From Bacilli bacterium (lineage in GTDB: Bacteria; Bacillota_I; Bacilli_A; ML615J-28; CAG-313), in NCBI GenBank assembly GCA_017501465.1, contig JAFVWY010000018.1, forward strand, positions 141,829-205,828: a stretch of 64,000 nucleotides of DNA, in the 5' to 3' direction. Numbering within the stretch: the stretch's first letter is position 1; each line of letters starts with the position of its first letter. Under the pieces are notes generated by a model. It saw only the letters and a program-made list of their open reading frames with translations, ran no database searches and was not told where the DNA came from. The position numbers and the translations under genes are program-made. Shown here one piece after another: positions 162 to 47,143 of the stretch.

Positions 162-252
162 GGAGCAGTACTCAAGAGGCTGAAGAGGTGCCCCTGCTAA
201 GGGCATAGACTGGGAAACTGGTGCAAGGGTTCAAATCCCTTCTGCTCCGCCA
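162..252 (+). tRNA. tRNA-Ser (anticodon GCU)
   Basis: The 7-bp acceptor stem pairs GGAGCAG (162-168) with CTGCTCC (242-248), followed by discriminator G and encoded CCA. The anticodon stem TGCCC/GGGCA encloses loop CTGCTAA with anticodon GCT, which reads AGC/AGU. The long variable arm is the class II form expected for serine, and the T-arm carries GGTTCAAATCC. Confidence 0.97.
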
Positions 253-256
253 TTGT

Positions 257-333
257 GGTCCGTTGGAGAAGTGGCTTAACTCACATGCCTTTCACGCATG
301 CATTCACGAGTTCGAATCTCGTACGGATCACCA
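257..333 (+). tRNA. tRNA-Glu (anticodon UUC)
   Basis: Acceptor GGTCCGT (257-263) pairs with ACGGATC (323-329, one G-U), then discriminator A and encoded CCA. Anticodon stem CATGC/GCATG encloses CTTTCAC, anticodon TTC. The T-arm ACGAG-TTCGAAT-CTCGT is perfect. It lies four bases after tRNA-Ser, so both are cotranscribed. Confidence 0.97.
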
Positions 334-7689: not shown

Positions 7690-8718
7690 ATGCCATATAT
7701 AATTTCAGCATCAGAAAAGACTAGAAAATCTGCATCAGAAACTGAAACAAAAGCATTATTGTATTTAATGAATTTTGACGAACATAGTAGTCAAATACAC
7801 TACTATATTATTGATGTAATAAATGACCTCTCTGGACATTCTGTAGATATGATTAATTCTTGGGATGTTCAATCGAAAGGAAATAAATCTCCTTCCCCCA
7901 AAACTATTGGAAAGGAAATAGTTACGCTTTTTAAAAATTTTATGTCTGAATTCAATTTTATGAAATCAATATTATTTCTAGGTGGTGTATCATCTACTTT
8001 TAGAATTGACGAGAGCATTAATATATTTGGAATTGAAAATGTTAAGTCATCATCAAAGACCAAAATGATTGAAGGATTAAAAGAAGAAGCTGCAGAAAAG
8101 GAATATATTGAAGGAGAGTGGATCACTGATGAAAATATTGATATTTTTTTAGACCAATTAACTTTTGTTATTGATGATAAAGGTAAAACTGAATATGTCA
8201 GAGGAATTATTAGCCTTAAAACTTCCGTTATAGTTAATGATGAAATTTTAATAAGCATTTTCGATTCCATCAGGGATGTGCAGTCAGCTAAAAAGAATAA
8301 TATGAATGTTGAAGGTAAAAGTTTGAATTCACTAACTGATATCTTAAGATTTAAAAGACACATGACATCAGATGAAATTCGAATTATGGCATTAAATCGT
8401 ATAGTAAACACAAATATAATGGATAAAGGAATGCCGATTTGCCTTAATGAAGTAATTGGACATTTGAGTAAAAATGATTTGAAAGATGTTGTTGAAGACT
8501 GTAAATTGAATATTTCTAAAGCACTGTTCGACAAAAATAATAGCGATAATTTTTGGGATTTGTTTGGTGAAATATATACACTTATTACTGATAATCCACA
8601 GGGAACAATAGAGAAAATATTTATTTTGATTAATAAAAACAAAATAAATTGTGTTCATCATTTAGATGAAATGGCTATAAAATATTTAGTTGCGCTAATA
8701 ATGGAGGTTATTATATGA
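7690..8718 (+). CDS. Cap4/DUF4297-like PD-(D/E)xK nuclease, Lamassu LmuA-like effector
   Basis: 342 residues with a strong ribosome site (AAGGAGGAAATAT). The N-terminal 130 residues look like a PD-(D/E)xK nuclease of the Cap4/DUF4297 type. Acidic residues D42 and D46 lie in a helical segment, followed by the signature WDVQSKG with Q61 and K63, the D-QxK variant known in Cap4. The rest is helical and of unknown fold. Its last codons overlap the next ATG (ATGA), so it is coupled to an SMC-like ATPase. A Cap4 nuclease plus SMC ATPase is the core of Lamassu defence, where ATPase sensing releases DNA degradation. Family assignment rests on motif and neighbour, so it is probable rather than certain. 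Confidence 0.65.
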   Translation: MPYIISASEKTRKSASETETKALLYLMNFDEHSSQIHYYIIDVINDLSGHSVDMINSWDVQSKGNKSPSPKTIGKEIVTLFKNFMSEFNFMKSILFLGGVSSTFRIDESINIFGIENVKSSSKTKMIEGLKEEAAEKEYIEGEWITDENIDIFLDQLTFVIDDKGKTEYVRGIISLKTSVIVNDEILISIFDSIRDVQSAKKNNMNVEGKSLNSLTDILRFKRHMTSDEIRIMALNRIVNTNIMDKGMPICLNEVIGHLSKNDLKDVVEDCKLNISKALFDKNNSDNFWDLFGEIYTLITDNPQGTIEKIFILINKNKINCVHHLDEMAIKYLVALIMEVII

Positions 8719-10322
8719 TTATAAATAAGATTGCTATTGGTAATTCCCAAGAAGCATTTATTGAGGATAGATTTACAAGTGGACTAAACATAATTTCAAG
8801 TGATGATAATAACAAAGGTAAAACAATTGTTATGCAAGCAATATTTTATGCTATTGGTAATGAACCTGTATTTCCTTCATCATTTGATTATAAAGAATAT
8901 TACTATATACTAGATTTCACTTTGGATAATGGAAATAACATTTTGTGTTGTAGAAAAAATGATTCATATGTTGTAAAAGTAAATGAAAGTTTAAATTTAT
9001 TTGATTCAACAGCAGAATTGAAAAGATTTTTTTCTAGAAATGGATTTGAATTTCCATATATTATAAAAGATAATATTAAAAAAATGGTAGATCCAGTTTT
9101 GTTATATGAGTTGTTCTTTGTTGGTCAAGACAAGAAAAACACTTCTGATATTATTCATAAAGGTTATTATAAAAAAGAAGATTTCATAAATATGATTTAT
9201 TCAATTGCAGGAATAGAATTAGTCCAAACATTAAACGTTGACGAAGAACTTACTAAAAAAAGAATAGATGAACTTGAAGAAGAAAAAAAACAATTAAAAA
9301 AACAAAATAAAATTTTATCTTCTAAAAGTACAACAATGAATACAGTTTCAACCTATAGTGATATAACATCTTTGGAATCTAAATTTTCTGAAATAAAAAA
9401 AATAAAAGATACTATTGTAGAATGTTCTAAAGAAAGAAATAGATTAATTAATAGACTACTTAAAAATGAAAATGCATTAAAAGAGTTAAGATCGTTAAAT
9501 CAATTTATAGAATCAGGAACTTTGCGATGTTCGGATTGTGGCAGTGATAAGATTTTTTATTACACAGAGGATAAGTCATATAATTTTGATATAACAACAA
9601 CAGACATGAGAACTCAAATTCTTAATTCAATTGAAGAAAAAATAGAAGCATATAAAGATGAAATAGATAAGTTAAATAATGTAATTGAGCAGTCTCAAAC
9701 TTTGTTAAAGGAATTATTAAAAGATCGTGATATATCAATTGAATCAATATTACTATATAAACCAGATTTTATTAATTATGTTGATGCAGATAATAGGCTT
9801 GTAGAAATAAAAAAAGAAATAAAAACATTAAAAGATTCATTAATAGTAGGAAAAACAAAGTCTAAGTATGTTCAAGAACAGAGAAATAAACTTATTGAAG
9901 ATATAGAGCAAGCAATGGACTCTATTTACCATATAATTGAATCTAATGGCCCTAATACATTTAGTATATTTACAAAAAAAGAAGAAACATATTCGGGATG
10001 CGAAGGGACAGAGTTTTATTTATCCAAACTATATGCGTTGCAAAAGATATTAAATCATACATATCCAATTGTAATGGATTATTTTAGAGATGGAGAGTTG
10101 TCAACACAAAAGGAAAGTGTAGTGATTGAAGAGTTCAAAAAACTATCAAATCAGGTTATTTTTTCTGCCACTTTAAAAGAACAAGAACTAGGAAAATATG
10201 ATAATATTGAAGATGTAAATCATATAGACTATATATCTAATATTCCGTTTCATTTATTACAAGAATCTTTTGTACAATTATTTGATGAATTGTTGAAAGA
10301 ATTAAATATAAAGATAAAATAA
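8715..10322 (+). CDS. SMC/RecN-type ATPase, Lamassu LmuB-like
   Basis: 535 residues. The N-terminus is an ABC/SMC head with a Walker A ending NNKGKT near residues 30-37. Two long coiled-coil arms follow (about 170-265 and 295-400), divided by a CxxC (C272, C275) that resembles a zinc hook. The C-terminal head has YPIVMDYFRDGE as a Walker B-like strand and a FSAT motif in place of a D-loop. This is the compact SMC form found in Lamassu and related ABC-type defence cassettes. It overlaps the nuclease gene by four bases and has GGAGG just upstream. The likely role is sensing phage DNA ends or structures and controlling the nuclease. Confidence 0.75.
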   Translation: MIINKIAIGNSQEAFIEDRFTSGLNIISSDDNNKGKTIVMQAIFYAIGNEPVFPSSFDYKEYYYILDFTLDNGNNILCCRKNDSYVVKVNESLNLFDSTAELKRFFSRNGFEFPYIIKDNIKKMVDPVLLYELFFVGQDKKNTSDIIHKGYYKKEDFINMIYSIAGIELVQTLNVDEELTKKRIDELEEEKKQLKKQNKILSSKSTTMNTVSTYSDITSLESKFSEIKKIKDTIVECSKERNRLINRLLKNENALKELRSLNQFIESGTLRCSDCGSDKIFYYTEDKSYNFDITTTDMRTQILNSIEEKIEAYKDEIDKLNNVIEQSQTLLKELLKDRDISIESILLYKPDFINYVDADNRLVEIKKEIKTLKDSLIVGKTKSKYVQEQRNKLIEDIEQAMDSIYHIIESNGPNTFSIFTKKEETYSGCEGTEFYLSKLYALQKILNHTYPIVMDYFRDGELSTQKESVVIEEFKKLSNQVIFSATLKEQELGKYDNIEDVNHIDYISNIPFHLLQESFVQLFDELLKELNIKIK

Positions 10323-10353
10323 AATGATAGGAAATAAAAAAAGGAGCATTTAA

Positions 10354-10776
10354 ATGAACGAAGACAAAAAACAGTATTTGCAGATGATACAAGAACCAAT
10401 AAGTAGGATGTCGTCAATTTCGGTAACTATTAAAGGCTTTACGGCAACAATTATAACAGGATTAACAGTAATATCATTTTCTGAAATTAAAACAATTATA
10501 CTAATACTGGCTTTTATGCCAATATTAGCTTTCACAATTATGGATATGTATTATTTGAGCATGGAAAGAAAATTTAGATACTTATATAATTGTGTATTAG
10601 ATGAAAAACATGACATTAATTTCTCATTAAAATTAATGAATGAACCATCAGATATAATAAGCGCACGAGCTAGATTTTTAGATTGCCTGAAGTCTCCGAG
10701 TATATATTTATTCTATCCATTGGTTTATGTAGTTTATATTATAACAATTATATTAAAAATAGGAGGAGTTTTATAA
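10354..10776 (+). CDS. Small multi-pass membrane protein paired with the TIR gene
   Basis: 140 residues. After a short polar N-terminus (QMIQEPISRMSS) come hydrophobic helices at about 24-44, 47-67 and 115-137. A conserved-looking aromatic, basic stretch (MYYLSMERKFRYLYN) lies between them. From memory this pattern matches a family of small membrane proteins often encoded beside ThsB-like TIR proteins, where the membrane partner may be the effector or anchor. I cannot confirm the family here. It lies 31 bases after the SMC gene, has AAGGAGC as ribosome site, and its stop abuts the TIR ATG. Confidence 0.6.
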   Translation: MNEDKKQYLQMIQEPISRMSSISVTIKGFTATIITGLTVISFSEIKTIILILAFMPILAFTIMDMYYLSMERKFRYLYNCVLDEKHDINFSLKLMNEPSDIISARARFLDCLKSPSIYLFYPLVYVVYIITIILKIGGVL

Positions 10777-11388
10777 ATGGCACATAAGACTTTTATTTCA
10801 TATAAATATAGCGAATCACAAACTTTAAGAGATAATATAATTAATAAATTAGGGGATGATGCTACTTATTATAGAGGTGAAACTTCTGATTCGCCTGATT
10901 TAAGTGATTTTAAAACCGAAACAATAAAGAAAAAATTAACTGATATGATGTATGATACAAGTGTAACAATTGTAATATTGTCTCCCAATATGAGAGAGAG
11001 TAAATGGATTGATTGGGAAATAGAGTATTCCTTAAAAGATATTACAAGAAAAGATAGAACATCGCATAATAATGGAGTTGTTGCAGTAATTATGAAAGTT
11101 GATGGTTCATACTCTTGGTTTAAAAAATCGGGGGTTAATTGCCATAGAACCGGCATTGTAAAATATGAAATGGATAAAATTTGTAAAATTATTTCAGCAA
11201 ATCACTTTAATTCTAATCCTCCAAAATGGCATTGCAATACATGTAAGACATACGATTGGTTGAATGGATCTTATATTACTTTTGTAGAAGAAGATGATTT
11301 TTTAGAAGAACCATTAAAATATATTGACAATGCATATGATAAAAGTGAAAATGATGGAAAAGGATATAAATTGAATAAAGAAAGATAA
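10777..11388 (+). CDS. ThsB-like TIR-domain protein (TIR_2/DUF1863 type)
   Basis: 203 residues. The first 130 residues carry a TIR-like fold: HKTFISYKYSES in the first strand, a YYRGETSDSPDL loop, TVTIVILSPNM in the central strand and SKWIDWEIEYSLKD around the candidate catalytic glutamate. This matches the ThsB/MTH538 kind, where TIR domains make signalling nucleotides from NAD. A C-terminal extension of about 70 residues has a CNTCKTYDW motif that may bind zinc. It follows the membrane protein with no gap and AGGAGG upstream. No ThsA (SIR2-SLOG) gene is present; the membrane protein would have to be the responder. The TIR assignment is good, the partner logic inferred. Confidence 0.75.
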   Translation: MAHKTFISYKYSESQTLRDNIINKLGDDATYYRGETSDSPDLSDFKTETIKKKLTDMMYDTSVTIVILSPNMRESKWIDWEIEYSLKDITRKDRTSHNNGVVAVIMKVDGSYSWFKKSGVNCHRTGIVKYEMDKICKIISANHFNSNPPKWHCNTCKTYDWLNGSYITFVEEDDFLEEPLKYIDNAYDKSENDGKGYKLNKER

Positions 11389-11390
11389 TT

Positions 11391-11654
11391 ATGAACAAAC
11401 TATTTAAATATATATTAGAAAACTATAATGATGGAATTGAAAAAGTAGATTCATCTACTGAACTATATAAAGTATTAACAAAAACACTTCCTAATAAAAT
11501 AGGATATACACTAGGAATAAGTGATCTTATAGTTAAAGGATCTATGGGATAAGGTAATAAAACACAGTATCCTTGGATTGCTATAATGGATAAGAACATT
11601 ACACAATCAACTCAATATGGATTAAAAAAACAATTATATGAGCTATATTATTAA
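11391..11654 (+). pseudogene. Fragment of an McrB N-terminal (DUF3578/MrcB) domain
   Basis: From ATG 11391 the frame reads an MrcB-like N-terminus and reaches KGSMG, then TAA (11550-11552), then GNKTQYPWIAIMDKNIT. In this family the motif is GxGQGN followed by PWIA, so the stop lies exactly where Gln belongs. The frame ends at 11654 without the rest of the domain or the AAA GTPase. It is a truncated, nonsense-carrying relic of an McrBC-type modification-dependent restriction gene lying right behind the TIR gene. Confidence 0.7.
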
Positions 11655-11714
11655 AACAATTAATTATAAAATTTACGTATTCTAAATTATTAAGATGAAA
11701 TCTTTGTTTAAATA

Positions 11715-11723
11715 TGTTATAAT
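11715..11723 (+). promoter_or_regulatory. Extended -10 promoter of the m5C/GHKL/HNH operon
   Basis: TGTTATAAT, 32 bases before the ATG at 11755. The sequence around it (AAATATGTTATAAT) is shared with the promoter before 17,997. Confidence 0.65.
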
Positions 11724-11754: not shown

Positions 11755-13032
11755 ATGAAATCATATACAATAAAAGAATTATCAAAACTAAGTGGCTTAA
11801 ATAGAAAAGAAATAAGAAAGCATTTAATTGCGCAAACATTAAAGAATGAAGTGCGTTCAGGAAAATACTTTGTAGAAGAAGAAGATTTAAATGTGTGGTT
11901 AAAGAACCCGACTGTTCTAGATGAAAATAATTTAGACTCTATTTTCAATGAAGAACAAGAAGAGGTACTAGAAGAAAAGGGTATTTATGAAAAAGATATT
12001 AGTAAAAGTAAAAAAAATATTGATTGGAAAAATGTTCCTTTAAACACTATTAAATTTGCTGACTTTTTCTGTGGAGCTGGAGGAATTTCTTTAGGTTTAT
12101 TGATGGCTGGATATGAGCCTGTTTTAGGAGTTGATATTAATGAGTCAGCTATTGAAACATATAGAAAAAATTTAGGTTCAAGATTCGAAAAATTAACTAA
12201 TCTTTCTGCAAAAGATATTACAAAAAAAGAAGTTAAAAGCGAAATCATTCAAAAGTTAAAAACTGAAAATGTTAAACTTATTTGTGGAGGATTCCCGTGT
12301 CAAGGGTTTAGCTTATCAGGTAGTAGAGTAATATCTGACCCTAGAAATACTTTATATAAAGATATGCTAGAGATTGTTGATGAAGTTAGACCAGAATTTA
12401 TTGTAATGGAAAATGTTGTAGGAATTACAACTATATATAAAGGTAAAGTACTAAACAAAATAATTCGAGATTATAGGAGAATAGGATATGAAATCTCGTG
12501 GCAAGAAATAAATGCTGCAGATTTTGAAGTTGGACAATCAAGAAAAAGAATTATTTTTATAGGTAATTGTGTAGATAAAAGAAACATATTCCCTAAAAAA
12601 TTAATAGATGATCCTGCAAATTATATTACTTGTGGTGACGTAATTGAAAAATATAAAACTATGAATGAAGATAAATCTATTAATCATATTTTTTCAAGAC
12701 ATTCTGATACTATGAAACAAAGACTTTTAGCAGTTCCTGTTGGTAAAAGTTTATATTCTAACTATGGAGATTCTTGGAAAAAGTGTTCTAAGGATAAACC
12801 TTCATGTACAATAAAAGGTAATCATGGGGCAACTAATATTCACTATGAACTTCCTAGAGTAATTACACCTAGGGAAATGGCAGCTTTGCAATCTTTCCCA
12901 GATGATTATATTTTTTATGGATCTAAACATGATATTCTTGTTCAAATAGGAAATGCTGTAGCACCATACGTAGCAAGATCAATAGGACTTGCTCTAAAAG
13001 AAGAAATATTAAAAGAAATAAATGAGGATTAA
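11755..13032 (+). CDS. DNA (cytosine-5-)-methyltransferase with N-terminal HTH
   Basis: 425 residues from ATG 11755; the longer frame from 11695 begins before the promoter. Residues 1-50 form an excisionase/MerR-like helix-turn-helix (YTIKELSKLSGLNRKEIRKH). From about 100 the canonical C5 methyltransferase motifs follow: FADFFCGAGGIS (I), GGFPCQGFS with catalytic C182 (IV), ENV (VI), QSRKRIIF (VIII), and NAVAP (X) at the end. The variable target-recognition domain lies between VIII and IX. It would methylate cytosine in a specific site and protect DNA from the linked HNH nuclease. The HTH probably autoregulates the operon, as known for several C5 methyltransferases. It overlaps no gene but is 1 base from the next ATG. 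Confidence 0.92.
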   Translation: MKSYTIKELSKLSGLNRKEIRKHLIAQTLKNEVRSGKYFVEEEDLNVWLKNPTVLDENNLDSIFNEEQEEVLEEKGIYEKDISKSKKNIDWKNVPLNTIKFADFFCGAGGISLGLLMAGYEPVLGVDINESAIETYRKNLGSRFEKLTNLSAKDITKKEVKSEIIQKLKTENVKLICGGFPCQGFSLSGSRVISDPRNTLYKDMLEIVDEVRPEFIVMENVVGITTIYKGKVLNKIIRDYRRIGYEISWQEINAADFEVGQSRKRIIFIGNCVDKRNIFPKKLIDDPANYITCGDVIEKYKTMNEDKSINHIFSRHSDTMKQRLLAVPVGKSLYSNYGDSWKKCSKDKPSCTIKGNHGATNIHYELPRVITPREMAALQSFPDDYIFYGSKHDILVQIGNAVAPYVARSIGLALKEEILKEINED

Positions 13033-13033
13033 T

Positions 13034-14938
13034 ATGTCTAAGTGGAAATGGAATTTTAGTGTAAAAAATGAGCCTGATTATAAATTAGTAGATTCATTTA
13101 GTGATTCAAAGTTCAATATTAATTGTGTTGCCTCTTTTACTAGGGAAATTATTCAAAATTCATTGGATGCTAAGAATAAAGAAATTAATTCTCCCGTAGA
13201 AGTTAAGTTTGAAATTAAAAAAATAAAATCTAGTAAAATTCCAGGAATAGCTGATTTATTATTTGTGCTTGAGAAATCATTATTGAATTTAACTCATCCT
13301 GAAACAATAAACAAATTTAAAAGAGCAATAGAAAACTTAAAGAAAGATGAAATAGAAGTTTTAAAAATTTCTGACTATAATACTCTTGGAATGACTTTGA
13401 AAAGTTGGGAAGCTTTATTATTTAAAGAAGGCGTTTCTGACAAACAAAATGATTCATCAGCTGGAAGACATGGTGTAGGGAAAAAAGCGTCATTTCTAAT
13501 GAGTTTATGTAATACTGTATATTATGCTACTAAAAATATTAATGATGAAATTTTTTTTAGTGGGAAATCTGTATTAGTCGATTGGAAAAAAGATAATAAT
13601 GATAGTGAGTGGTATTCAAGAACAGGATGGTTTGGTGATAAAACTGACAATAGTATTAGATTTTTAAAAAATGAAGAAATAAATGATATTGATAATTTCT
13701 TTATTAGAAAAGATTCATATGGTTCAGATGTAATGGTTTTATCTCCAAGAGTTATTGATGAAGAATATGATCTTGAAAGATTGATAATTAATTCGGTTTT
13801 AGAAAATTTCTATGTTGGTTTATGCGAAAATAAATTGGTTGTGAAAGTTAATAAAATAGAAATCAATTCAAAAAATGTGAATAATGTTTTAGAAAATTAT
13901 TATATTGACAAATTTACAAGACAAGGAATTATTGGTTCTAATATTACTTATGGTTTGCTGAGAGATTTTAAGAATGCGTATATAGAAAATTATAAAACTC
14001 CTGTAGTTATCGATATACCAAAATTAAATTCTCATTTAGATTTATACATAACATTAAATACAGAAAAAGCTAAGAAATACTATTCTTTCTATCGTGATCA
14101 TGGTATGAAAATAAAAGATGAAAGATTTAGTGATGCAGATAAGACATTTGCAGCAATAGTTGTGGCAAGAGGAGATGGCATTAATGAATTTTTACTTAAT
14201 TTAGAAAATGCTGCTCATGATGATTTTATAGTTGATGAAAATTTAGATAAAGATAAAAAGAAAGAATTTAATGATATGCTATCATATATTAAAGATATGA
14301 TTGGCTATAATATTAAAAAAATAACAAAATTGGATTTAAGTGATGAAATTGAGTTAAATGAACTTAACGATATAATTGACAACCCTGGTGAAATAAGTAG
14401 AAAAGTTTCTAAAAAAACAACAGCTAAGAAAAGTATAAAACCAGAAAGTAAAATTGTAATTCAAACAAAATCAAATAAACAAGTTGAAGAAGAATGGAAT
14501 GAAAGAATTAAACCACTAGATCCTATTCCTGCAACACCAATAAAACCGATAGGGCCTGACACTCCTCCTCGTCCATTACCTTATTCTAAAGAATTAGAAG
14601 AAGAAAACAAAGAAGAAAAGAAGTTGCTTAAAGAGGTCGCTTTCGAAAAAATGTTAGTAACATTACATGATTGTTATTATATGCAATTTTCATGTTCATA
14701 TAATTTGAAACGAGTATCAATTCAAGTTACTGCTAAAAATGTTGATGATGCAGAAAATGATGTTGGTTATATGTTAAGCGAAATTCTATGGAACAATGAA
14801 ATTTATCCTAATAAGGGTAATAATTATATTGAACTAGGTGATTTAGCTGCATATGAAGATATGAAATTATTTATTAAATTAAAAGAATCTTCTAGATATA
14901 AATTATTCGCAAGAATTGTAGGTAAAACATATGATTAA
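13034..14938 (+). CDS. GHKL-type ATPase (paraMORC/Hsp90-like) linked to restriction
   Basis: 634 residues starting MSKWKWNF. The N-terminus has the GHKL ATP-binding motifs: REIIQNSLDAK (E38, N42, D45), the ISDYNTLGM box near 110-118, and GRHGVGKKASF near 143-153, the lid glycine motif. This set is the Hsp90/MutL/MORC fold. Bacterial paraMORC proteins occur beside m5C methyltransferases and nucleases. The middle is a transducer-like domain; the C-terminal part has a Pro-rich linker (PIPATPIKPIGP) and a small mixed domain. The gene follows the methyltransferase by one base and overlaps the next gene by eight. It probably works as an ATP-driven clamp coupling recognition to cleavage. Confidence 0.8.
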   Translation: MSKWKWNFSVKNEPDYKLVDSFSDSKFNINCVASFTREIIQNSLDAKNKEINSPVEVKFEIKKIKSSKIPGIADLLFVLEKSLLNLTHPETINKFKRAIENLKKDEIEVLKISDYNTLGMTLKSWEALLFKEGVSDKQNDSSAGRHGVGKKASFLMSLCNTVYYATKNINDEIFFSGKSVLVDWKKDNNDSEWYSRTGWFGDKTDNSIRFLKNEEINDIDNFFIRKDSYGSDVMVLSPRVIDEEYDLERLIINSVLENFYVGLCENKLVVKVNKIEINSKNVNNVLENYYIDKFTRQGIIGSNITYGLLRDFKNAYIENYKTPVVIDIPKLNSHLDLYITLNTEKAKKYYSFYRDHGMKIKDERFSDADKTFAAIVVARGDGINEFLLNLENAAHDDFIVDENLDKDKKKEFNDMLSYIKDMIGYNIKKITKLDLSDEIELNELNDIIDNPGEISRKVSKKTTAKKSIKPESKIVIQTKSNKQVEEEWNERIKPLDPIPATPIKPIGPDTPPRPLPYSKELEEENKEEKKLLKEVAFEKMLVTLHDCYYMQFSCSYNLKRVSIQVTAKNVDDAENDVGYMLSEILWNNEIYPNKGNNYIELGDLAAYEDMKLFIKLKESSRYKLFARIVGKTYD

Positions 14939-15818
14939 GACAAGTGATTTTCCGTACCCGGTTTTAAGAAGTGATAAAAGTGTTTTAACAAGTTATAAGA
15001 GAGAATATTATTTGAATATAAACTGTGATGATCCAATAAATAATGAAAATGAATATATTTTTAAAACTCAACTTTTAACAAATTCTGAAACTATCAATAA
15101 TATGCTTTCAGAAGGTAAGGCGTCATCTTATATTATTTATCAAACCAAAATTTTAAAAAGAATTTATAAAATCGATAATTCAGATTTGACTTATGAATTG
15201 AAGATACCATATTCATATTTTCAATCAATGGATGAAGTTAAAATTTCTGCTATTATTACAGCAAATGAAGATTTTGAGTTGTTATATAATGATGAAATTG
15301 ATGATGGTTATAATTTAGATGTCCCATATTTTATTACTAAAAAAGATATTGTAGCTATTTCAAATGAGATAATTTTTGATTTTAATAAAACTGGTAAAAC
15401 AATTATTAAATTGATTAAGCGTAATGATTTAACATCTGGATTTCAAGTGAACATTAATCAGGATGAATACATTTTAATTGAAGTGAACCCTGAATTTAAA
15501 AAAGCTTATGATGTTGTTGCTGTTAAACAGTCTGAATTAAAAATTCCAGCACTAACCATGATACATTCAAGTTTAATTCATATGGCAATGATTAATGTTT
15601 TTATTAGATTAATTAAAGAAGATTATAAACAACACATAAACAAAAGATGGTTTAAAGTGATAAGAAGTACTTTAAATACAAAAGATGTAATTTTAGAAGA
15701 TAGTTTATCTGATTTAAATGAAGATTTCGATATTAATAAAGTATACGAATTAGTTGATAAATTTTTAAATCATTTCTTTGACAAAGCAATATCTAAGTGT
15801 AGTGAGGCGTTAAAATGA
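14931..15818 (+). CDS. Hypothetical component of the GHKL restriction operon
   Basis: 295 residues, no recognised domain. The N-terminal 150 residues look beta-rich (alternating short strands, DFPYPVLRS start), and the C-terminus is helical with a long amphipathic stretch from about 205 to 290. No membrane segment or Cys cluster is visible. It overlaps the GHKL ATPase gene by eight bases and the following gene by four, so it is very likely an obligate part of the same complex. The beta-rich N-terminus might bind DNA or the ATPase, but nothing in the sequence decides. Confidence 0.65.
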   Translation: MIKTSDFPYPVLRSDKSVLTSYKREYYLNINCDDPINNENEYIFKTQLLTNSETINNMLSEGKASSYIIYQTKILKRIYKIDNSDLTYELKIPYSYFQSMDEVKISAIITANEDFELLYNDEIDDGYNLDVPYFITKKDIVAISNEIIFDFNKTGKTIIKLIKRNDLTSGFQVNINQDEYILIEVNPEFKKAYDVVAVKQSELKIPALTMIHSSLIHMAMINVFIRLIKEDYKQHINKRWFKVIRSTLNTKDVILEDSLSDLNEDFDINKVYELVDKFLNHFFDKAISKCSEALK

Positions 15819-16639
15819 AAATAGAATTAAGAAAAATAAATACATCTGAATATAATAATTTATTAAATAACATTAATGATAATTTAGAATTTTATATGAA
15901 TTATGAAAACAATGATATTCATATTTATGATGATGTTCGTACACTTGAAGAAATTAGCGAACCAATTGTTAATGGTGAAAAAATAGAAATAGAAATTTCA
16001 GAGGCAGATCTAAAATTTTTATCAACAATTTTAAAATGGAAAGAAAATTATTTGGTTGGCAAATTACTTCATAAAAAATTACAGCAATATGAATATAAAT
16101 TCTATGGTGTTTTTTATGAACGTGGTTTTTGGGCATATATTTGTCATCATCCTATGTTTAGAAAGTATATAAAAAATAGATATTTTTCAGGTGTGGTTGA
16201 AGAGTCAGAAGAAGATGATGATAAAAATGAAGATGTTGTGAAAAAAATTGAAAGATTTTTCTTATGTAAAGGAACTGCAAGTAGAACAGGTGTAATGTTT
16301 AATTGGATGCTTACTGAAAGTTTATATGATAAATATAAAATGTATGATTTATCAGAAGTAGGATTTTCATTTATTGATAGTGTAAAAGCAATTTATGAAA
16401 GAAGTTTTCATATGAATAAAAGAATAGTGAAAGCATTTGTTCAAGGTATTATTAATAACAACAGATCTGCTGCATTCAAAGATACTAAAACTAATTATCG
16501 TTCTATTATTCCAACTCATATTAGCAATATTGCAGCATTAAATTCATTAGATAGTTATGATAGTTATAATGACTTAGTCCAAAAAATAACATTAGAGCAA
16601 AAACATATCATTGCTTTGTATGAAAAGGAAAGAAGGTAA
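15815..16639 (+). CDS. Hypothetical component of the GHKL restriction operon (possibly DUF6339-like)
   Basis: 274 residues, mostly helical. A region at about 100-150 has WAYICHHPMFRKYI and then an acidic linker (EESEEDDDKNEDV), followed by CKGTASRTGVMFNWMLTESLYDKY, which looks conserved. From memory such proteins are called DUF6339 in similar operons, but I hold this weakly. It overlaps the preceding gene (ATGA) and is three bases from the HNH gene. It is probably a structural or targeting subunit; no catalytic motif is evident. Confidence 0.6.
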   Translation: MKIELRKINTSEYNNLLNNINDNLEFYMNYENNDIHIYDDVRTLEEISEPIVNGEKIEIEISEADLKFLSTILKWKENYLVGKLLHKKLQQYEYKFYGVFYERGFWAYICHHPMFRKYIKNRYFSGVVEESEEDDDKNEDVVKKIERFFLCKGTASRTGVMFNWMLTESLYDKYKMYDLSEVGFSFIDSVKAIYERSFHMNKRIVKAFVQGIINNNRSAAFKDTKTNYRSIIPTHISNIAALNSLDSYDSYNDLVQKITLEQKHIIALYEKERR

Positions 16640-16642
16640 AAT

Positions 16643-17380
16643 ATGACCTTTGAACAATGGTTAAAAGAAATATATTTGAAATCAAATGGTAAACCTCTTT
16701 CAACTTCATCTGTAGAAAAATATAAACGTGGTCTATCAACGACTTCAATGGAAATGTTAAAAAAAGGAATAATAAGAAAACCATTAGAAGAAATGGAATT
16801 GATGGAATTAGACTTGGCCATATCAATTATAATGAATACTAAATCTTTTATAGATAAAGATATAAAAGGTGATAGAATGTATAGCAATTCTTTAAAAAGA
16901 TATCGCTGTTATGTTTATCATAATGCTGATTTTGGTAAGAAAGAAGTAGAAGAAATTGAAAACCTACAAAAAGATATAAAATTAACTGAAACTGAAAAAG
17001 AAACACTAATTAAAGCAAGAAAGGGACAAGGTTTATTTAGAGATAAGCTAAAAGAAAAATATAACAATAGATGTATCATTACTGATATTAATATTTCGCA
17101 GGTATTAATAGCGAGTCACATTAAACCATGGGCTGTTTCAAATAATGAAGAAAGATTATCAGTTGATAATGGATTACTTCTTTCTGCGACTTTTGATAGA
17201 TTATTTGATAGTGGATTAATTACGTTTAAGAAAGATGGTACCATATTAATATCTAATTTAATTAGTAAAGATAATATAGAAAAACTACATTTAAAAGAAG
17301 GTCAAGTATATGATATTAAATATAATCCTGATATGGATGAATATTTAACTTATCATAACGATGTTATTTTTGTAAGATAG
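16643..17380 (+). CDS. HNH endonuclease, restriction component
   Basis: 245 residues. The C-terminal half is an HNH domain: C144 and the CIITDI strand, the ASHIKPW motif with catalytic-type H159, then NGLLLSATFDRLFDSGLITF with the conserved Asn and Asp residues. This matches the HNH_2 type found in type II restriction enzymes. The N-terminal half is a helical region with a possible target-recognition or oligomerisation role (KPLSTSSVEKYKRGLSTTS). It is three bases after the previous gene and completes a methyltransferase-ATPase-X-Y-nuclease operon. The likely activity is double-strand cleavage of DNA lacking the cognate cytosine methylation. Confidence 0.85.
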   Translation: MTFEQWLKEIYLKSNGKPLSTSSVEKYKRGLSTTSMEMLKKGIIRKPLEEMELMELDLAISIIMNTKSFIDKDIKGDRMYSNSLKRYRCYVYHNADFGKKEVEEIENLQKDIKLTETEKETLIKARKGQGLFRDKLKEKYNNRCIITDINISQVLIASHIKPWAVSNNEERLSVDNGLLLSATFDRLFDSGLITFKKDGTILISNLISKDNIEKLHLKEGQVYDIKYNPDMDEYLTYHNDVIFVR

Positions 17381-17407: not shown

Positions 17408-17833
17408 ATGGCAAAATTAGTATATGGAAAGAGAAATAAATTAAATTTTCGAGATTATGGGGAATTTTATAAAGCATATGGCTTTTTATGTAATTCTTCA
17501 AAACATAGTTTAAAAGTAATGCTGGAGTATAATGCAAGAAGCGGTGCTTGGGGAAATGAAGGGCGAATATTATTATATAAACATAGTACTACACATTACA
17601 CACCTCTTCCTCAAGCCTTTTATAATAAGCTAACAGCAGGAAGAGGAAGAATAATTAATAGAATTAATTGTAATGAATATGTTTTAGAATTGTATCAACA
17701 TTATGGCTTTTCTGTTTCTAATACAATTAATGGAATAACTCCATCGAATTTGACACCTCCATCATTACAAGATGCATTAACTTATGTTCCAGTGGCATAT
17801 CAAAATGATTTTTTGCAAGGATATAATATGTAG
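17408..17833 (+). CDS. Hypothetical protein at the end of the HNH operon
   Basis: 141 residues, start supported by AAGGAG seven bases upstream. It is a soluble, aromatic-rich protein with motifs such as LEYNARSGAWGNEGRI and YTPLPQAFYNKL and no recognised domain. It lies 28 bases after the HNH gene and just before the strong terminator, so it is probably the last gene of that operon. It could be a regulator, an immunity partner or an unrelated passenger; the sequence does not tell. Confidence 0.55.
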   Translation: MAKLVYGKRNKLNFRDYGEFYKAYGFLCNSSKHSLKVMLEYNARSGAWGNEGRILLYKHSTTHYTPLPQAFYNKLTAGRGRIINRINCNEYVLELYQHYGFSVSNTINGITPSNLTPPSLQDALTYVPVAYQNDFLQGYNM

Positions 17834-17860
17834 CTATTATAAAACCTAGATGGGTCAATA

Positions 17861-17897
17861 AAATCTATTAGTGAATCAGACTAATAGATTTTTTTTA
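17861..17897 (+). terminator. Strong terminator of the m5C/GHKL/HNH operon
   Basis: Perfect 12-bp stem AAATCTATTAGT/ACTAATAGATTT around a seven-base loop, followed by more T. Confidence 0.9.
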
Positions 17898-17996: not shown

Positions 17997-20501
17997 ATGA
18001 ATACATATATAAGTTTATTTAGTAGTGCTGGGGTTGGTTGCTATGGTTTTAAAATGGAAAATTTTGAATGTATTGCAACAAATGAATTAATAGAGCGTAG
18101 ATTAAATGTTCAAAAACATAATAAGAAATGCAAATATGAATCAGGTTATATATGCGGTGATATTACTCAAGACGAAATAAAAGAATCACTTTACAAAGAA
18201 ATTAAATTTTGGAAAACAAATGAAAATTTAAAAAGAGTAGATGTTGTTATTGCTACTCCTCCTTGTCAAGGAATGTCAGTAGCAAATCATAAAAAGAATG
18301 ATAAAGAGATTATAAGAAATTCATTAGTTGTTGAGTCAATAAAAATAATTAAAGAAATTAATCCTAAATTTTTTATATTTGAAAATGTTCCTGCCTTTAT
18401 GAAAACAATATGTACCGATATAGATGGGCAAGATAAATTAATTTCTGAAGCAATTGAAAATAATTTGGGAGAACTATATTCATATAGTGCTAAAGTAATA
18501 AATTTTAAGAACTTTGGAGCATGTTCTAGTAGATCAAGAACTGTTGTGATAGGTGTGTCAAAAGAATTGGTAGATGACATTGGGCCTGCCGAATTATATC
18601 CTATTTATAGAGAAGAAACAACATTACGCGAAACAATAGGGCATTTAAAAAGTTTAACAATAATGGGTGAAATTGATGAAAATGATATATACCATGCTTT
18701 TAGAGAATACCCAGAACGTATGAGAGCGTGGATAACAGATTTAAACGAGGGTGAATCTGCTTTTGATAATGTCGATGATAGTAAAAAACCACATCAAATT
18801 GTTGGTGGTAAAATGGTAATTAATCAAAGGAAAAATGCTGATAAGTATACTAGAACTTATTGGGATAAAGTTGGACCATGTGTTCATACAAGAAACGATC
18901 AATTAGCAAGTCAAAATACAATTCATCCATCAGATGATCGCGTGTTTAGTATAAGAGAATTAATGTTGATGATGACTGTTCCATATGAATTTAAATGGAG
19001 CGAGTATGATTTAGAATATTTGAATAATCTTTCATTGAGTAAAAAGAAACAATACTTAAAAAAAGAAGAAATCAAAATTAGACAATCATTAGGTGAAGCC
19101 GTTCCAACGATTATATTTAAGGAGATTGCAGCAAACATTAAAATCAAATTAAATAAACCTAAAGTAAAAAAAAACACAATTAATCAATTGATAGAAAAAT
19201 ATCAGGATTTAAATACTGAAGATTTAATAGATTTTATAAAGAATAATCCACTAGACCTATCAATATCGACTCTAAGCAAAATAGCAGAAATGGCTAATAC
19301 AAAAAGAACTGATAATGGTGCATTTTATACTAACAAAGAGTTAATCACGAAGATGATGGAAACACTTAAACTATCAGATAAAGAAGAGATTAATGTTTTA
19401 GAACCATCTGTTGGAGTTGGGAACTTTATACCATTTATTATTGATAAGTTTAATGATAAAAAATTAAATATAGATGTTATTGATGTAGATGAAAATAGTG
19501 TGAAAATTGCCAAGGTCTTAATGGATAAATATAACATTCCTAAAAATGTAGAGATTAATTATATTGTTGATGATTTCTTAACACACAAATTTGATAAACA
19601 TTATGATTATATAATTGGAAATCCACCGTTTGTTAAAATAAAAGATGCAAAATTGTTAAAGCAATATAGAAAACATTGTAAAAATTCAGATGCTACAAAT
19701 ATATGCTCATACTTTTTAGACAAAACTGTAGAATTAGCTGATTCAATTGCTATAGTATTTCCAAAGTTTATTTTAAATACACCAGAGTATATTAGAACTA
19801 GAGACTATTTAAAAAAATTGAATGTAGAATGTATTATTGATTTTGGTGAAAAGGGTTTTCCTGGGGTATTAATTGAAACAATTGCTCTTTTTATTAATCT
19901 AAATACTAAACCTAATAATACAAGAATAATTTCATTAACTAATAATATAGATATAATACAAAAGCAAAATTATATAATGGATTTTAAATTACCATACTGG
20001 ATAATTTATAGAAACGAATATTTTGATATGGTATGGAAAAAATTAGAATTCAATGTATTTGATGTTTTTAGAGATAGACAAATCACAAATTCATTAATGA
20101 ATGATAAAAAAGGTTATAGAGTAATAAAATCAAGAAATATTCAAAAAGATGGATCAATCGTTGATATACCTAACTATGACTCATATGTTGAGAAAGATAT
20201 TGCAATAAATTTAGCGATATATGATTATTTAGAACGAGATGATGTTTACTTGACACCGAATATGACTTATTATCCTAGAGTTATCAAAAAGCCAAGAGGT
20301 GTATTAGTTAATGGGTCAGTTGCAATATTAATTCCAAAAACTAACATTGAATTAACTAAAGAACAATGTGATTATTTCTCATCAGAAGAGTATTGGAACT
20401 TTTATGGAATAGCTCGTAATTATCAAACTAGATCCCTTAATGTCGATTCATGTTCAGTATATTTCTATGGATTATTAAAACAAGGAGAAGAAAATGATTA
20501 A
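17997..20501 (+). CDS. Bifunctional m5C plus m6A DNA methyltransferase (fusion)
   Basis: 834 residues with ribosome site AAAGGAGAA. The N-terminal half is a C5 methyltransferase: LFSSAGVGCYGF (motif I variant, lacking the usual FxGxGG), TPPCQGMS with catalytic C90, FENVPAF (VI), SSRSRTVVIG (VIII) and LGEAVPTIIF (X-like). After a linker at about 390-425 the C-terminal half is an adenine methyltransferase: GAFYTNKELI, VLEPSVGVGNF (I), and NPPFVKI with N542 (IV), like Eco57I/Alw26I-type enzymes. One protein that marks both cytosine and adenine suits an asymmetric type IIS site where each strand needs a different mark. It overlaps the nuclease gene by eight bases. Both halves look intact. Confidence 0.88.
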   Translation: MNTYISLFSSAGVGCYGFKMENFECIATNELIERRLNVQKHNKKCKYESGYICGDITQDEIKESLYKEIKFWKTNENLKRVDVVIATPPCQGMSVANHKKNDKEIIRNSLVVESIKIIKEINPKFFIFENVPAFMKTICTDIDGQDKLISEAIENNLGELYSYSAKVINFKNFGACSSRSRTVVIGVSKELVDDIGPAELYPIYREETTLRETIGHLKSLTIMGEIDENDIYHAFREYPERMRAWITDLNEGESAFDNVDDSKKPHQIVGGKMVINQRKNADKYTRTYWDKVGPCVHTRNDQLASQNTIHPSDDRVFSIRELMLMMTVPYEFKWSEYDLEYLNNLSLSKKKQYLKKEEIKIRQSLGEAVPTIIFKEIAANIKIKLNKPKVKKNTINQLIEKYQDLNTEDLIDFIKNNPLDLSISTLSKIAEMANTKRTDNGAFYTNKELITKMMETLKLSDKEEINVLEPSVGVGNFIPFIIDKFNDKKLNIDVIDVDENSVKIAKVLMDKYNIPKNVEINYIVDDFLTHKFDKHYDYIIGNPPFVKIKDAKLLKQYRKHCKNSDATNICSYFLDKTVELADSIAIVFPKFILNTPEYIRTRDYLKKLNVECIIDFGEKGFPGVLIETIALFINLNTKPNNTRIISLTNNIDIIQKQNYIMDFKLPYWIIYRNEYFDMVWKKLEFNVFDVFRDRQITNSLMNDKKGYRVIKSRNIQKDGSIVDIPNYDSYVEKDIAINLAIYDYLERDDVYLTPNMTYYPRVIKKPRGVLVNGSVAILIPKTNIELTKEQCDYFSSEEYWNFYGIARNYQTRSLNVDSCSVYFYGLLKQGEEND

Positions 20502-21720
20502 TCAATCTCAAGTCGAACAATTTATAAACTCGAAAAATTATGATATTAGAATAAGTGGAAATGCAAGATGGATCGATCAAAAATGTACTCCTGATGTTTT
20601 ATGGTCAATTTCAGATTTTATTTTAAATTATGTTGATAATGTAAATGAACAATTTACTGTTGCGGATATATGGACAAGTGATTATGCAAAATTAACAATT
20701 GCTGAGACTTATTCTAAACCTGGAATTGATGAAAAAACTGCTGAGAATGAATATGATAAAGTTTTTTCTCAACCAATAAACTTATTATGCTATGCTGGGA
20801 TATTAGAAGATATTAGCCTTACATCACGCCATCTATACAAAGTTATAAATAGAGAAATTTTAGAATATATTGCAAGAAATGATATTTTTTCCCTTAGGTT
20901 TTTACAATTGTACATTGAAAAAGTATTAAAAGACAGTGGTATTTACCATTATTTTCAAAGTTTTTTTGATAATCAAGATAATACACATTATAATCAGTTA
21001 AAAAACGTATTTATAGAATTTTACCATATGTATACTCCTGTAAAAAAAGATCTTGAGCCCAAACGAATTTTTACAAAAGTAGTAAATCCATTGGCATTTA
21101 AATATTTAAAAAAAGGTTCTGAAAGAGGCAGGATGTCAAAAGACTTAATTAATAGGTCTGATATGATGTATAATAGAGATAATTTTAGAGATGTATATTT
21201 AGGTAAGCCTAAAGGCGTAACTAGACAAGAATGGTTACAAAGTCATCCAGATATTGATATGAGAACAGGTTATTTTGAACAAATGATGAATAAAGCTAAA
21301 AAAGTTATTAAAGATAGCACGATTAATTTTAGAAATAATGTTTCAGAATTAACTCAATTTAGTATAAATCATGATGATTATAATCCTGCAACACAGTTAC
21401 ATCATATTTTTCCTAAAAATGAGTTTCCCGAAATTATGCACTATTTGGAAAATATGATTGCAATTACTCCAAACCAACATTATGGATTTGCACATCCAAA
21501 CAATAATACAAATATAATTGATGTTGGAGCACAGAAAGAATTATTATTGGTGAAAGTTGAAAGTATACAATTAAATCTATCTAATAATGCAGAAGAAGAA
21601 ATTTATGAATTTGATAATTTGCTATATGTTCTTTGTGTTGGATTAGAAGATTCGAATATAATGAAGATTAAAAACGGTGATTATATCGACGTTATACAAG
21701 CCATAAATGCTCATTATTAA
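20494..21720 (+). CDS. HNH restriction endonuclease partner of the fused methyltransferase
   Basis: 408 residues, with AAGGAGAAG upstream of the ATG. The C-terminal third has an HNH/beta-beta-alpha-metal site: QLHHIFPKNEF (H303, H304), then LENMIAITPNQHYGFAHP supplying the Asn and distal His. The N-terminal 250 residues have no recognised domain and likely hold target recognition (for example FLQLYIEKVLKDSGIYHYF). The pairing with a double-specificity methyltransferase recalls Alw26I/Eco31I/Esp3I-type IIS systems, whose nucleases also use HNH, but this protein is shorter and the relation is unproven. Confidence 0.8.
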   Translation: MINQSQVEQFINSKNYDIRISGNARWIDQKCTPDVLWSISDFILNYVDNVNEQFTVADIWTSDYAKLTIAETYSKPGIDEKTAENEYDKVFSQPINLLCYAGILEDISLTSRHLYKVINREILEYIARNDIFSLRFLQLYIEKVLKDSGIYHYFQSFFDNQDNTHYNQLKNVFIEFYHMYTPVKKDLEPKRIFTKVVNPLAFKYLKKGSERGRMSKDLINRSDMMYNRDNFRDVYLGKPKGVTRQEWLQSHPDIDMRTGYFEQMMNKAKKVIKDSTINFRNNVSELTQFSINHDDYNPATQLHHIFPKNEFPEIMHYLENMIAITPNQHYGFAHPNNNTNIIDVGAQKELLLVKVESIQLNLSNNAEEEIYEFDNLLYVLCVGLEDSNIMKIKNGDYIDVIQAINAHY

Positions 21721-23226: not shown

Positions 23227-23263
23227 AAATTATGAATAATTATTAAGATGAATGGGTGTTATT

Positions 23264-29469: not shown

Positions 29470-30347
29470 TGAAACCTTTCTTAAAATGGGCTGGTGGTAA
29501 AAGACAATTAATACCATATATTAAAAAGTATATAAATAAGAAAAAGATTGGTAAACACAAATACTATGAACCTTTTTTAGGTGGAGGGTCTATTTTCTTT
29601 GATTTGGCTCATGAAAACAGTAGCATAAATGATTTAAATGAAGAAATTATAAACTGTTATAATGTTATTAAAGAAAATCCAGATGAGTTGATAGATCTAC
29701 TAAAACTACATGCCGAAGCACATTGTAAAGAGTATTATTATAAAATAAGAAGTTTAGATAGACAAGAAGATTATAAATTCATGGATAATATTACTAAAGC
29801 GGCAAGGACTATATATTTAAACAGAACTTGCTTCAATGGCTTATACAGAGTGAATAAAAATGGTTTTTTTAATACACCTATTGGTAGATATGTTAATCCT
29901 TTAATTTGTGACGAAGAAAATATAAATGAAATTTCTTATTTTTTAAATAATAATGATGTAACTATTATGTCTAAAAGTTTCGAATTTGCAGTTGAAAAAT
30001 GTGAAAAAGGTGATTGGATATATTTTGATCCACCATACGATTATGAAAATAGCGGTTTTGTCGGATATGTTAAAGAAGGTTTTTCTCATGAAGATTTAGT
30101 TAAACTTAAAGAAGTGTGTGATGAACTAGTAAAAAAGGGTTGTTATGTTCTTGTATCAAATAACGATACTGAATTTGTTCGACAAACATTTAATAGTAGT
30201 GATTATGAAATTATTTATTCTACTAAAACTATAAAAGCAAACAGAAATATTAATAGTAAAGCTAGTAAAAGAAAAAAAGTTGATGAGGTGTTAATATATG
30301 GACATAAGCGAAAAAAACAAAAAAATTCCATTTCCTCAAGCAAATGA
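29469..30347 (+). CDS. Dam-family DNA adenine-N6 methyltransferase (D12 class)
   Basis: 292 residues. FLKWAGGKRQL at residues 4-14 is the motif I of Dam/DpnM-type enzymes, and DPPYDYENSGF with D187 is motif IV. NRTCFNGLYRVNKNGFFNTPIG at about 118-140 is the conserved D12 target-recognition region seen in GATC-type enzymes, so GATC is a plausible target. The ribosome site GAGGTG precedes the ATG, which shares one base with the helicase stop. It likely marks self DNA against the upstream PLD helicase. Length is normal for the family, with a lysine-rich tail overlapping the next gene. Confidence 0.92.
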   Translation: MKPFLKWAGGKRQLIPYIKKYINKKKIGKHKYYEPFLGGGSIFFDLAHENSSINDLNEEIINCYNVIKENPDELIDLLKLHAEAHCKEYYYKIRSLDRQEDYKFMDNITKAARTIYLNRTCFNGLYRVNKNGFFNTPIGRYVNPLICDEENINEISYFLNNNDVTIMSKSFEFAVEKCEKGDWIYFDPPYDYENSGFVGYVKEGFSHEDLVKLKEVCDELVKKGCYVLVSNNDTEFVRQTFNSSDYEIIYSTKTIKANRNINSKASKRKKVDEVLIYGHKRKKQKNSISSSK

Positions 30348-32372: not shown

Positions 32373-32408
32373 ACAATAAATAATGCTTTTATAGGAGAAA
32401 AATTGAAT

Positions 32409-47108: not shown

Positions 47109-47143
47109 AGGAGTGTATAATTTATATGAAGAGGAATCAAAAA

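What the first reader, a model, noticed from the sequence alone, without database searches (positions are those of the whole stretch)
11755..17380. m5C methyltransferase, GHKL ATPase, two unknowns and an HNH nuclease as one RM operon
Five genes with gaps or overlaps of a few bases. The GHKL (paraMORC-like) ATPase between methyltransferase and HNH nuclease is not standard type II architecture; two conserved-looking unknown proteins at 14,931 and 15,815 must be part of the machine. Known paraMORC clusters often include a Z1 helicase, absent here. It looks like an ATP-gated restriction complex.
Basis: partly seen in the sequence, partly recalled or inferred. Interest (0 to 1): 0.62.

Follow-up and report, generated by a model that had tools for sequence, protein, structure and literature searches.

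The report
Restriction operon with modular ATPase triad
A bacterial defence operon joins an ordinary DNA-methylating and DNA-cutting gene pair to a conserved trio (an ATP-using, MutL/MORC-like protein and two non-enzyme-like partners) that recurs beside many different restriction systems, so it looks like a plug-in ATPase module that has been listed as a candidate but never tested.

Summary
In detail: five co-directional genes (C5-methyltransferase, GHKL ATPase, two unknowns, HNH nuclease), gaps of 8 bp overlap to 3 bp, all catalytic motifs intact, one AT-rich terminator after a sixth small ORF. The GHKL protein and the two unknowns are a near-obligate triad: in 117 homologous loci found through the GHKL gene, unknown 1 follows in 112 and unknown 2 (or a same-size ORF) in 108. 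The triad is PADLOC's unpublished candidate PDC-M33A/B/C; its ATPase carries the ExxxH signature of Iyer's paraMORC2 in 118/118 sequences. But the restriction half is exchangeable: the triad sits beside HNH, IceA/NlaIII-like, FokI/AlwI-like, Sau3AI-like or no nuclease, and 10 of 23 triad genomes lack any C5-methyltransferase. Conversely, relatives of this methyltransferase (45-50% identical) occur without the triad. Yet methyltransferase and triad are linked beyond chance (6/13 genomes versus 0.17 expected) and this HTH-methyltransferase marks one ATPase clade. Predicted folds: unknown 1, two beta-sandwiches plus helices; unknown 2, all-helical with no structural match. Best reading: a type II RM pair served by a modular ATP-dependent adaptor. 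New variant of a known kind; coupling untested.

The parts
11391..11654 (+). Broken remnant of an MrcB-like protein N-terminal domain (one in-frame stop, truncated), just upstream of the operon; possibly a relic of an earlier partner nuclease
   Evidence: PF12102 MrcB_N 3e-15 when the stop is read through, profile positions 2-74 of 183
11695..11723 (+). Promoter-like site (ATGAAA-17-TATAAT with TG before the second hexamer) ahead of the methyltransferase start
   Evidence: consensus match only, number of sites not above shuffles
11755..13032 (+). C5-cytosine DNA methyltransferase, 425 aa, with an N-terminal helix-turn-helix extension
   Evidence: PF00145 2e-66, HTH_17 0.009; 45-47% identical over the full length, HTH included, to methyltransferases beside triads in L077, L047, L088, L120, L048
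13034..14938 (+). GHKL ATPase of the paraMORC2 type (PDC-M33A), 634 aa, ATP-site motifs, R354 and the ExxxH motif intact
   Evidence: PDC-M33A 1e-77; motif columns 117-118 of 118 sequences
14931..15818 (+). Unknown 1 (PDC-M33B-like), 295 aa: predicted two beta-sandwich domains plus helical C-terminal domain; conserved N-terminal FPYPVL motif
   Evidence: profile search from the window protein joins it to 112 loci, among them L038, which is PDC-M33B 2e-63; AlphaFold2 pLDDT 92.4
15815..16639 (+). Unknown 2 (DUF6339, PDC-M33C), 274 aa: predicted all-helical, no structural relative found
   Evidence: PF19866 2e-8, PDC-M33C 2e-6, AlphaFold2 pLDDT 85.9, pTM 0.85, no PDB fold match
16643..17380 (+). 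HNH (beta-beta-alpha-metal) endonuclease, 245 aa; nuclease domain residues about 108-245; N-terminal ~100 aa without a recognised sensor domain
   Evidence: HNH_2 9e-12; VcaM4I 6yex 1e-30 with all four active-site positions kept
17408..17833 (+). Unknown 141-aa ORF, same strand, 27 bp after HNH, probably in the same transcript
   Evidence: no family match, no relative in any fetched locus
17860..17892 (+). Terminator-like hairpin followed by U8
   Evidence: -12.7 kcal/mol, z -4.4, 0 of 200 shuffles as stable

Best explanation
It is a type II-like restriction-modification pair (HTH-C5-methyltransferase and HNH endonuclease) in one operon with a conserved three-protein ATPase module (paraMORC2 GHKL ATPase, a beta-sandwich protein and a helical DUF6339 protein = PADLOC's candidate system PDC-M33). 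Shown here by sequence: the triad travels as a unit; its ATPase site is intact in every relative; its partners are interchangeable methyltransferases and nucleases. Inferred mechanism: the methyltransferase marks the host's own sites; the GHKL protein dimerises through its N-terminal domain on ATP binding and closes on DNA as a MutL/MORC-type clamp; the two accessory proteins, which look non-catalytic, act as adaptor and DNA- or nuclease-binding subunits; on unmethylated incoming DNA the complex recruits or activates the local nuclease (here HNH, elsewhere NlaIII-like, FokI/AlwI-like or Sau3AI-like). In this view the ATPase module amplifies or licenses restriction and is not itself the cutter.
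For: Triad linkage 112/117 and 108/117, 99.5% of gaps at most 20 bp. Reciprocal search with the PDC-M33B profile: 17/17 comparable genomes have it beside the ATPase. ATP-site residues and ExxxH kept in 117-118 of 118 sequences. Link to methyltransferases: C5 gene within 6 kb in 6 of 13 genomes, expected 0.17; a methyltransferase-like gene within 7 kb in 78/117 loci. HTH-methyltransferase loci form one ATPase clade (SH-aLRT 96, label changes fewer than in all 500 shuffles); 5 of 7 class genomes with a near-full-length HTH-methyltransferase also hold a triad or triad fragment, against 29/395 overall. HNH directly downstream of unknown 2 in three separate ATPase clades (window, MT837792, Hungatella hathewayi). 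No nuclease-like fold in unknowns 1 and 2.
Against: 10 of 23 triad genomes have no C5-methyltransferase at all, and several triads have no methyltransferase or nuclease that I could recognise within 6-7 kb, so the triad may be a complete system of its own that only shares defence islands with RM genes. The HTH-methyltransferase also occurs without the triad. No interaction, restriction or ATPase data exist for any member I could find. I could not predict the complex.
Confidence: 0.5

Rival explanations
1. The triad is an autonomous anti-phage system (PDC-M33 proper) that merely sits next to a complete, independent type II RM pair; the operon is a shared transcript in a defence island.
For: Triads without a recognised methyltransferase or nuclease nearby; 10/23 triad genomes lack C5-methyltransferases; this island is packed with other defence genes; HTH-methyltransferase plus REase-like gene without an adjacent triad (L155, L156).
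Against: The triad proteins show no recognised effector (nuclease, toxin, TIR) by profile or fold; C5 adjacency is about 35 times above chance; the HTH-methyltransferase follows one ATPase clade; in the window the triad lies between the two RM genes.
Confidence: 0.3
2. One reading: all five proteins are one stable ATP-gated restriction complex with a fixed composition.
For: Single operon, intact motifs; the order methyltransferase-GHKL-U1-U2-HNH recurs in Hungatella hathewayi L102 (methyltransferase 489 bp upstream), and the same five parts with the methyltransferase last in MT837792.
Against: Composition is not fixed: nuclease and methyltransferase vary or are absent; HNH N-terminal regions in L066, L102 and L126 are not detectably related to the window's.
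Confidence: 0.12
3. The triad is a MutL-like repair or control unit for the RM system, for example handling methylation-linked mismatches or breaks the nuclease makes in the host.
For: GHKL relatives work in mismatch repair (PMC2292703); Vsr-like genes, which repair T:G mismatches at methylcytosine, occur in 15 of the loci.
Against: Vsr is usually linked to C5-methyltransferases anyway; triads are found in genomes with no C5-methyltransferase.
Confidence: 0.08

Closest known systems
PDC-M33 (PADLOC-DB v2 unpublished candidate system; proteins A, B, C)
   Same: GHKL = A (1e-77), unknown 2 = C (2e-6), unknown 1 = same family as B through intermediates; same gene order A-B-C
   Different: The window's unknown 1 is not recognised by the PADLOC B model, nor are unknowns 1 and 2 of its nearest relative L120; the flanking HTH-methyltransferase and HNH are not part of the three models; no published experiment found
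paraMORC families of Iyer, Abhiman and Aravind 2008 (PMC2292703)
   Same: N-terminal GHKL with all motifs, C-terminal S5-type region, invariant ExxxH = their paraMORC2 signature; gene neighbourhoods with methyltransferases and nucleases
   Different: Their account stresses a helicase (Z1 and others) and a PD-(D/E)xK nuclease; here there is no helicase and an HNH nuclease. I could not see their figure, so whether they drew this exact operon is unknown
Z1-type system (Miller et al. 2022 Type I, PMC9523054; loci L053-L056 here)
   Same: GHKL of the same family (hhalign 99.4%, 6e-22), third gene related to unknown 2 (95.5%, 1.5e-8), second gene possibly related to unknown 1 (26%, 7e-4; unrelated control 0.2)
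   Different: Adds Z1 and DUF4420 nuclease genes, absent in the window
Mza (MzaABCDE)
   Same: Sigma70-region-4 segment of the large protein that accompanies many triads resembles MzaA; Z1 and MutL-like logic
   Different: No Mza protein in the window operon
HEF_HK / Response_reg_2 GHKL pair with C5-methyltransferase and HNH_2 (Bellieny-Rabelo 2021, PMC8011034)
   Same: GHKL gene beside C5-methyltransferase and HNH_2
   Different: No Pfam domain of that pair is matched in the window
VcaM4I (EVE-HNH modification-dependent nuclease, 6yex, PMC7897488)
   Same: HNH domain, all four active-site positions kept
   Different: No match to its EVE sensor region; unrelated N-terminal region here

Membership tests
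PDC-M33 | Protein A (GHKL) | tested here: met
   PDLC04582 1e-77 over residues 4-624
PDC-M33 | Protein B | tested here: inconclusive
   Window unknown 1 has no direct match to PDLC04583 at E<=1, but an iterated profile from it reaches the B proteins and the gene position agrees
PDC-M33 | Protein C (DUF6339) | tested here: met
   PDLC04586 2e-6, PF19866 2e-8
PDC-M33 | Anti-phage activity | not testable with these tools
   No paper found; PDC systems are described as unpublished candidates (PMC11811056)
paraMORC2 (Iyer 2008) | GHKL motifs for ATP and Mg binding | tested here: met
   all key columns 117-118 of 118
[quoted passage not shown]
   E391 and H395 118/118
paraMORC2 (Iyer 2008) | Neighbouring SFII helicase | tested here: not met
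   none in the operon; the paper describes helicase linkage as common, not universal, so this is not a defining feature in the strict sense
MORC family | MORC-type GHKL and S5 sequence | tested here: not met
   profile comparison with two HATPase_c_3 GHKL proteins from MORC-Z1-DUF4420-like loci gives probability 0.2%
Type II restriction-modification | Intact methyltransferase plus intact nuclease in one operon | tested here: met
Type II restriction-modification | Same recognition site, cutting of unmethylated DNA without ATP | not testable with these tools
   no specificity or activity data
Z1-type system (Miller 2022 Type I) / Mza | Z1 helicase-like protein and DUF4420 nuclease | tested here: not met
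   absent from the operon
HEF_HK / Response_reg_2 | HEF_HK and Response_reg_2 (PF19192) domains | tested here: not met
   no match at E<=1

The most novel reading that the evidence does not exclude
The GHKL-U1-U2 triad is a general plug-in: an ATP-driven adaptor that couples to unrelated restriction systems (HNH, IceA/NlaIII-like, FokI/AlwI-like, Sau3AI-like, adenine methyltransferases, and, in a diverged form, Z1-DUF4420), so that 'ordinary' type II systems in many Bacillota are in fact ATP-assisted, with two new structural protein families as the coupling parts.
Probability: 0.35. Interest if true: 0.75.

Novelty: new variant of a known kind. Interest (0 to 1): 0.5.

Why it matters
MORC and paraMORC ATPases were proposed in 2008 to act in restriction and to be ancestral to eukaryotic chromatin MORCs, but the prokaryotic paraMORC2 branch has, as far as I could find, no experiment. 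This locus and the recurring partner pattern give a small, defined unit (three genes, known order, cultured carriers such as Hungatella hathewayi DSM 13479) in which the idea 'GHKL ATPase licenses a separate nuclease' can be tested directly, and they assign roles to be tested to two protein families with no known function.

Tried and rejected
Nuclease hypothesis for unknown 1 or 2: no profile or fold support; the hits of unknown 2 to designed helical-repeat proteins look like chance matches of helical sequence. Unknown 1 as an Ig-like protein: many Foldseek hits to antibody and FN3 domains but none with E<=0.001 and low TM-scores, so only 'beta-sandwich' is claimed. Unknown 1 = second gene of Z1-type loci: suggestive only; a deeper profile could not be built because only the same four loci turn up. 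GHKL as MORC: rejected. Close relatives in viral contigs from the single GHKL sequence: none; with a profile, six contigs. The small ~75-aa ORF that precedes the triad in 50 of 117 loci was sought and is absent in the window. My N6-methyltransferase profile became promiscuous for Rossmann methyltransferases, so only 'methyltransferase-like' counts are given for it.
Full report
Observation. The five genes exist at the stated places on the + strand with overlaps of 8 and 4 bp inside the GHKL-U1-U2 part and gaps of 1-3 bp on either side of it. A sixth ORF of 141 aa follows 27 bp later and then a strong AT-rich terminator hairpin; a TATAAT site with extended -10 lies just before the methyltransferase start (consensus match only). 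The methyltransferase belongs to PF00145 with an N-terminal HTH extension; the HNH protein to PF13391. The HNH active-site positions established by mutation in VcaM4I (H224, D250, D254; PMC7897488), plus N241, are all kept.

What the middle three genes are. PADLOC-DB calls the GHKL protein PDC-M33A (1e-77) and unknown 2 PDC-M33C (2e-6); unknown 1 is too diverged for the B model, but its family includes proteins that hit PDC-M33B at 2e-63. PDC systems are described in the literature as unpublished candidates (PMC11811056), and I found no paper naming PDC-M33 or DUF6339. The triad's ATPase is in 29 of 395 genomes sampled from the class (four of them the Z1 type), on plasmids and in Bacillota, Mycoplasmatota, Thermotogota, Cyanobacteriota, Planctomycetota and Pseudomonadota records.

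Conservation. In 117 loci located through the GHKL gene, unknown 1 follows it in 112 and unknown 2 in 102, with six more loci having an unlabelled ORF of the same size there; 99.5% of the gaps are at most 20 bp and 82% are overlaps. Searching with the B profile instead, all 17 genomes that were in both samples have it beside the GHKL gene. Every ATP-site residue is kept in 117-118 of 118 GHKL sequences, as are R354 and an ExxxH motif (E391, H395). ExxxH in the S5 region is the signature Iyer et al. gave for paraMORC2 (PMC2292703). Profile comparison ties this GHKL (6e-22) and unknown 2 (1.5e-8) to the corresponding genes of a Z1-DUF4420 system in four class genomes, and only hints at unknown 1. 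So the triad, or at least two thirds of it, appears older than either partner set.

Partners. Around the triad I found C5-methyltransferases (in or near the operon), D12 adenine methyltransferases, IceA-type (NlaIII-like, from my own knowledge of that family), FokI/AlwI-type and Sau3AI-type nucleases, HNH, Vsr, AIPR, and a large Sigma70-region-4 protein. Ten of 23 triad genomes have no C5-methyltransferase at all. Where one exists it is near the triad far more often than expected: 6 of 13 genomes within 6 kb, 0.17 expected under uniform placement (the window itself is one of the six). HNH lies directly after unknown 2 in three separate ATPase clades: the window, the gut phage-like record MT837792 and Hungatella hathewayi DSM 13479, the last in the same gene order as the window, with the methyltransferase 489 bp upstream.

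The methyltransferase. Its nearest relatives among the loci (45-47% identity over the whole length, HTH included) are all beside triads, and the ATPases of those loci form one clade together with a truncated contig (SH-aLRT 96, quick search). In 395 class genomes, seven carry a near-full-length HTH-methyltransferase; five of them also hold a triad or a triad fragment. But the same methyltransferase lineage also occurs with a restriction-enzyme-like gene and no adjacent triad (L155, L156) and with MORC-Z1-DUF4420 in genomes that seem to read TGA as Trp (L154, L158). Upstream of the window's methyltransferase lies a broken MrcB-like fragment, which fits a history of partner exchange.

Structures. 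Unknown 1: AlphaFold2 mean pLDDT 92, two beta-rich domains then a helical domain; Foldseek gives Ig/FN3-like sandwiches without significance. Unknown 2: pLDDT 86, pTM 0.85, all-helical, no PDB match. Neither resembles a nuclease. The conserved residues of unknown 1 include an N-terminal FPYPVL motif (invariant P10), which could be a docking segment (inference).

Mechanism. Shown: unit, order, intact active sites, exchangeable partners, association with methyltransferases. Inferred: ATP-driven clamp by the GHKL dimer (from established MutL/MORC behaviour), adaptor roles of unknowns 1 and 2, nuclease recruitment, methyl mark as self signal. The main rival is an independent defence triad beside an ordinary RM pair; the present data separate the two only weakly, mainly through the clade-specific link with the HTH-methyltransferase and the position of the triad between the two RM genes.

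Verdict. This is a diverged member of an existing unpublished candidate system in a variant arrangement with an RM pair.

Noticed in passing
window 11391-11654: Truncated MrcB_N domain fragment interrupted by one stop codon directly upstream of the operon; a likely relic of a former restriction gene.
   Followed up: partly
window 23252-25699: 815-aa Sigma70-region-4 protein of the same family as the large protein (MzaA-like segment) that stands in triad operons in over 20 other loci; here it heads a different cluster with a 429-aa unknown, a PLD+SNF2 helicase and a Dam-type methyltransferase (29469-30347).
   Followed up: partly
window 17997-21720: Second RM unit next door: an 834-aa fused C5 + N6 methyltransferase and a 408-aa protein matching a PADLOC restriction-enzyme model (1e-121).
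   Followed up: no
window 7690-11388: PDC-M22B-like ATPase (3e-193) and a ThsB-type TIR protein (5e-82) upstream; a 342-aa unknown precedes them.
   Followed up: no
window 34094-42262: Exonuclease V gamma-like (RecC), UvrD-family (RecB-like) and a further helicase-like ORF in one run inside a defence-rich region.
   Followed up: no
window 32403-33431 and 47126-49221: TIR-domain protein, and an AAA_15/AAA_21 ATPase followed by a 242-aa unknown.
   Followed up: no
L061:6728-6958, L120:8752-8982 and about 48 other loci: Conserved small ORF of 71-100 aa (motif GNLSN..NYEY) just upstream of the triad in 50 of 117 loci, no Pfam match, absent in the window.
   Followed up: partly
L154, L158: HTH-C5-methyltransferase followed by a MORC-like GHKL, Z1 and (in L154) DUF4420 in genomes that appear to read TGA as Trp; L158 also has an HNH gene upstream.
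   Followed up: partly
L102:6947-14028: Hungatella hathewayi DSM 13479 chromosome has methyltransferase-GHKL-U1-U2-HNH-Vsr in the same order as the window: a cultured strain suited for experiments.
   Followed up: partly
window 162-333: tRNA-Ser and tRNA-Glu genes at the edge of the defence island, a possible integration site.
   Followed up: no
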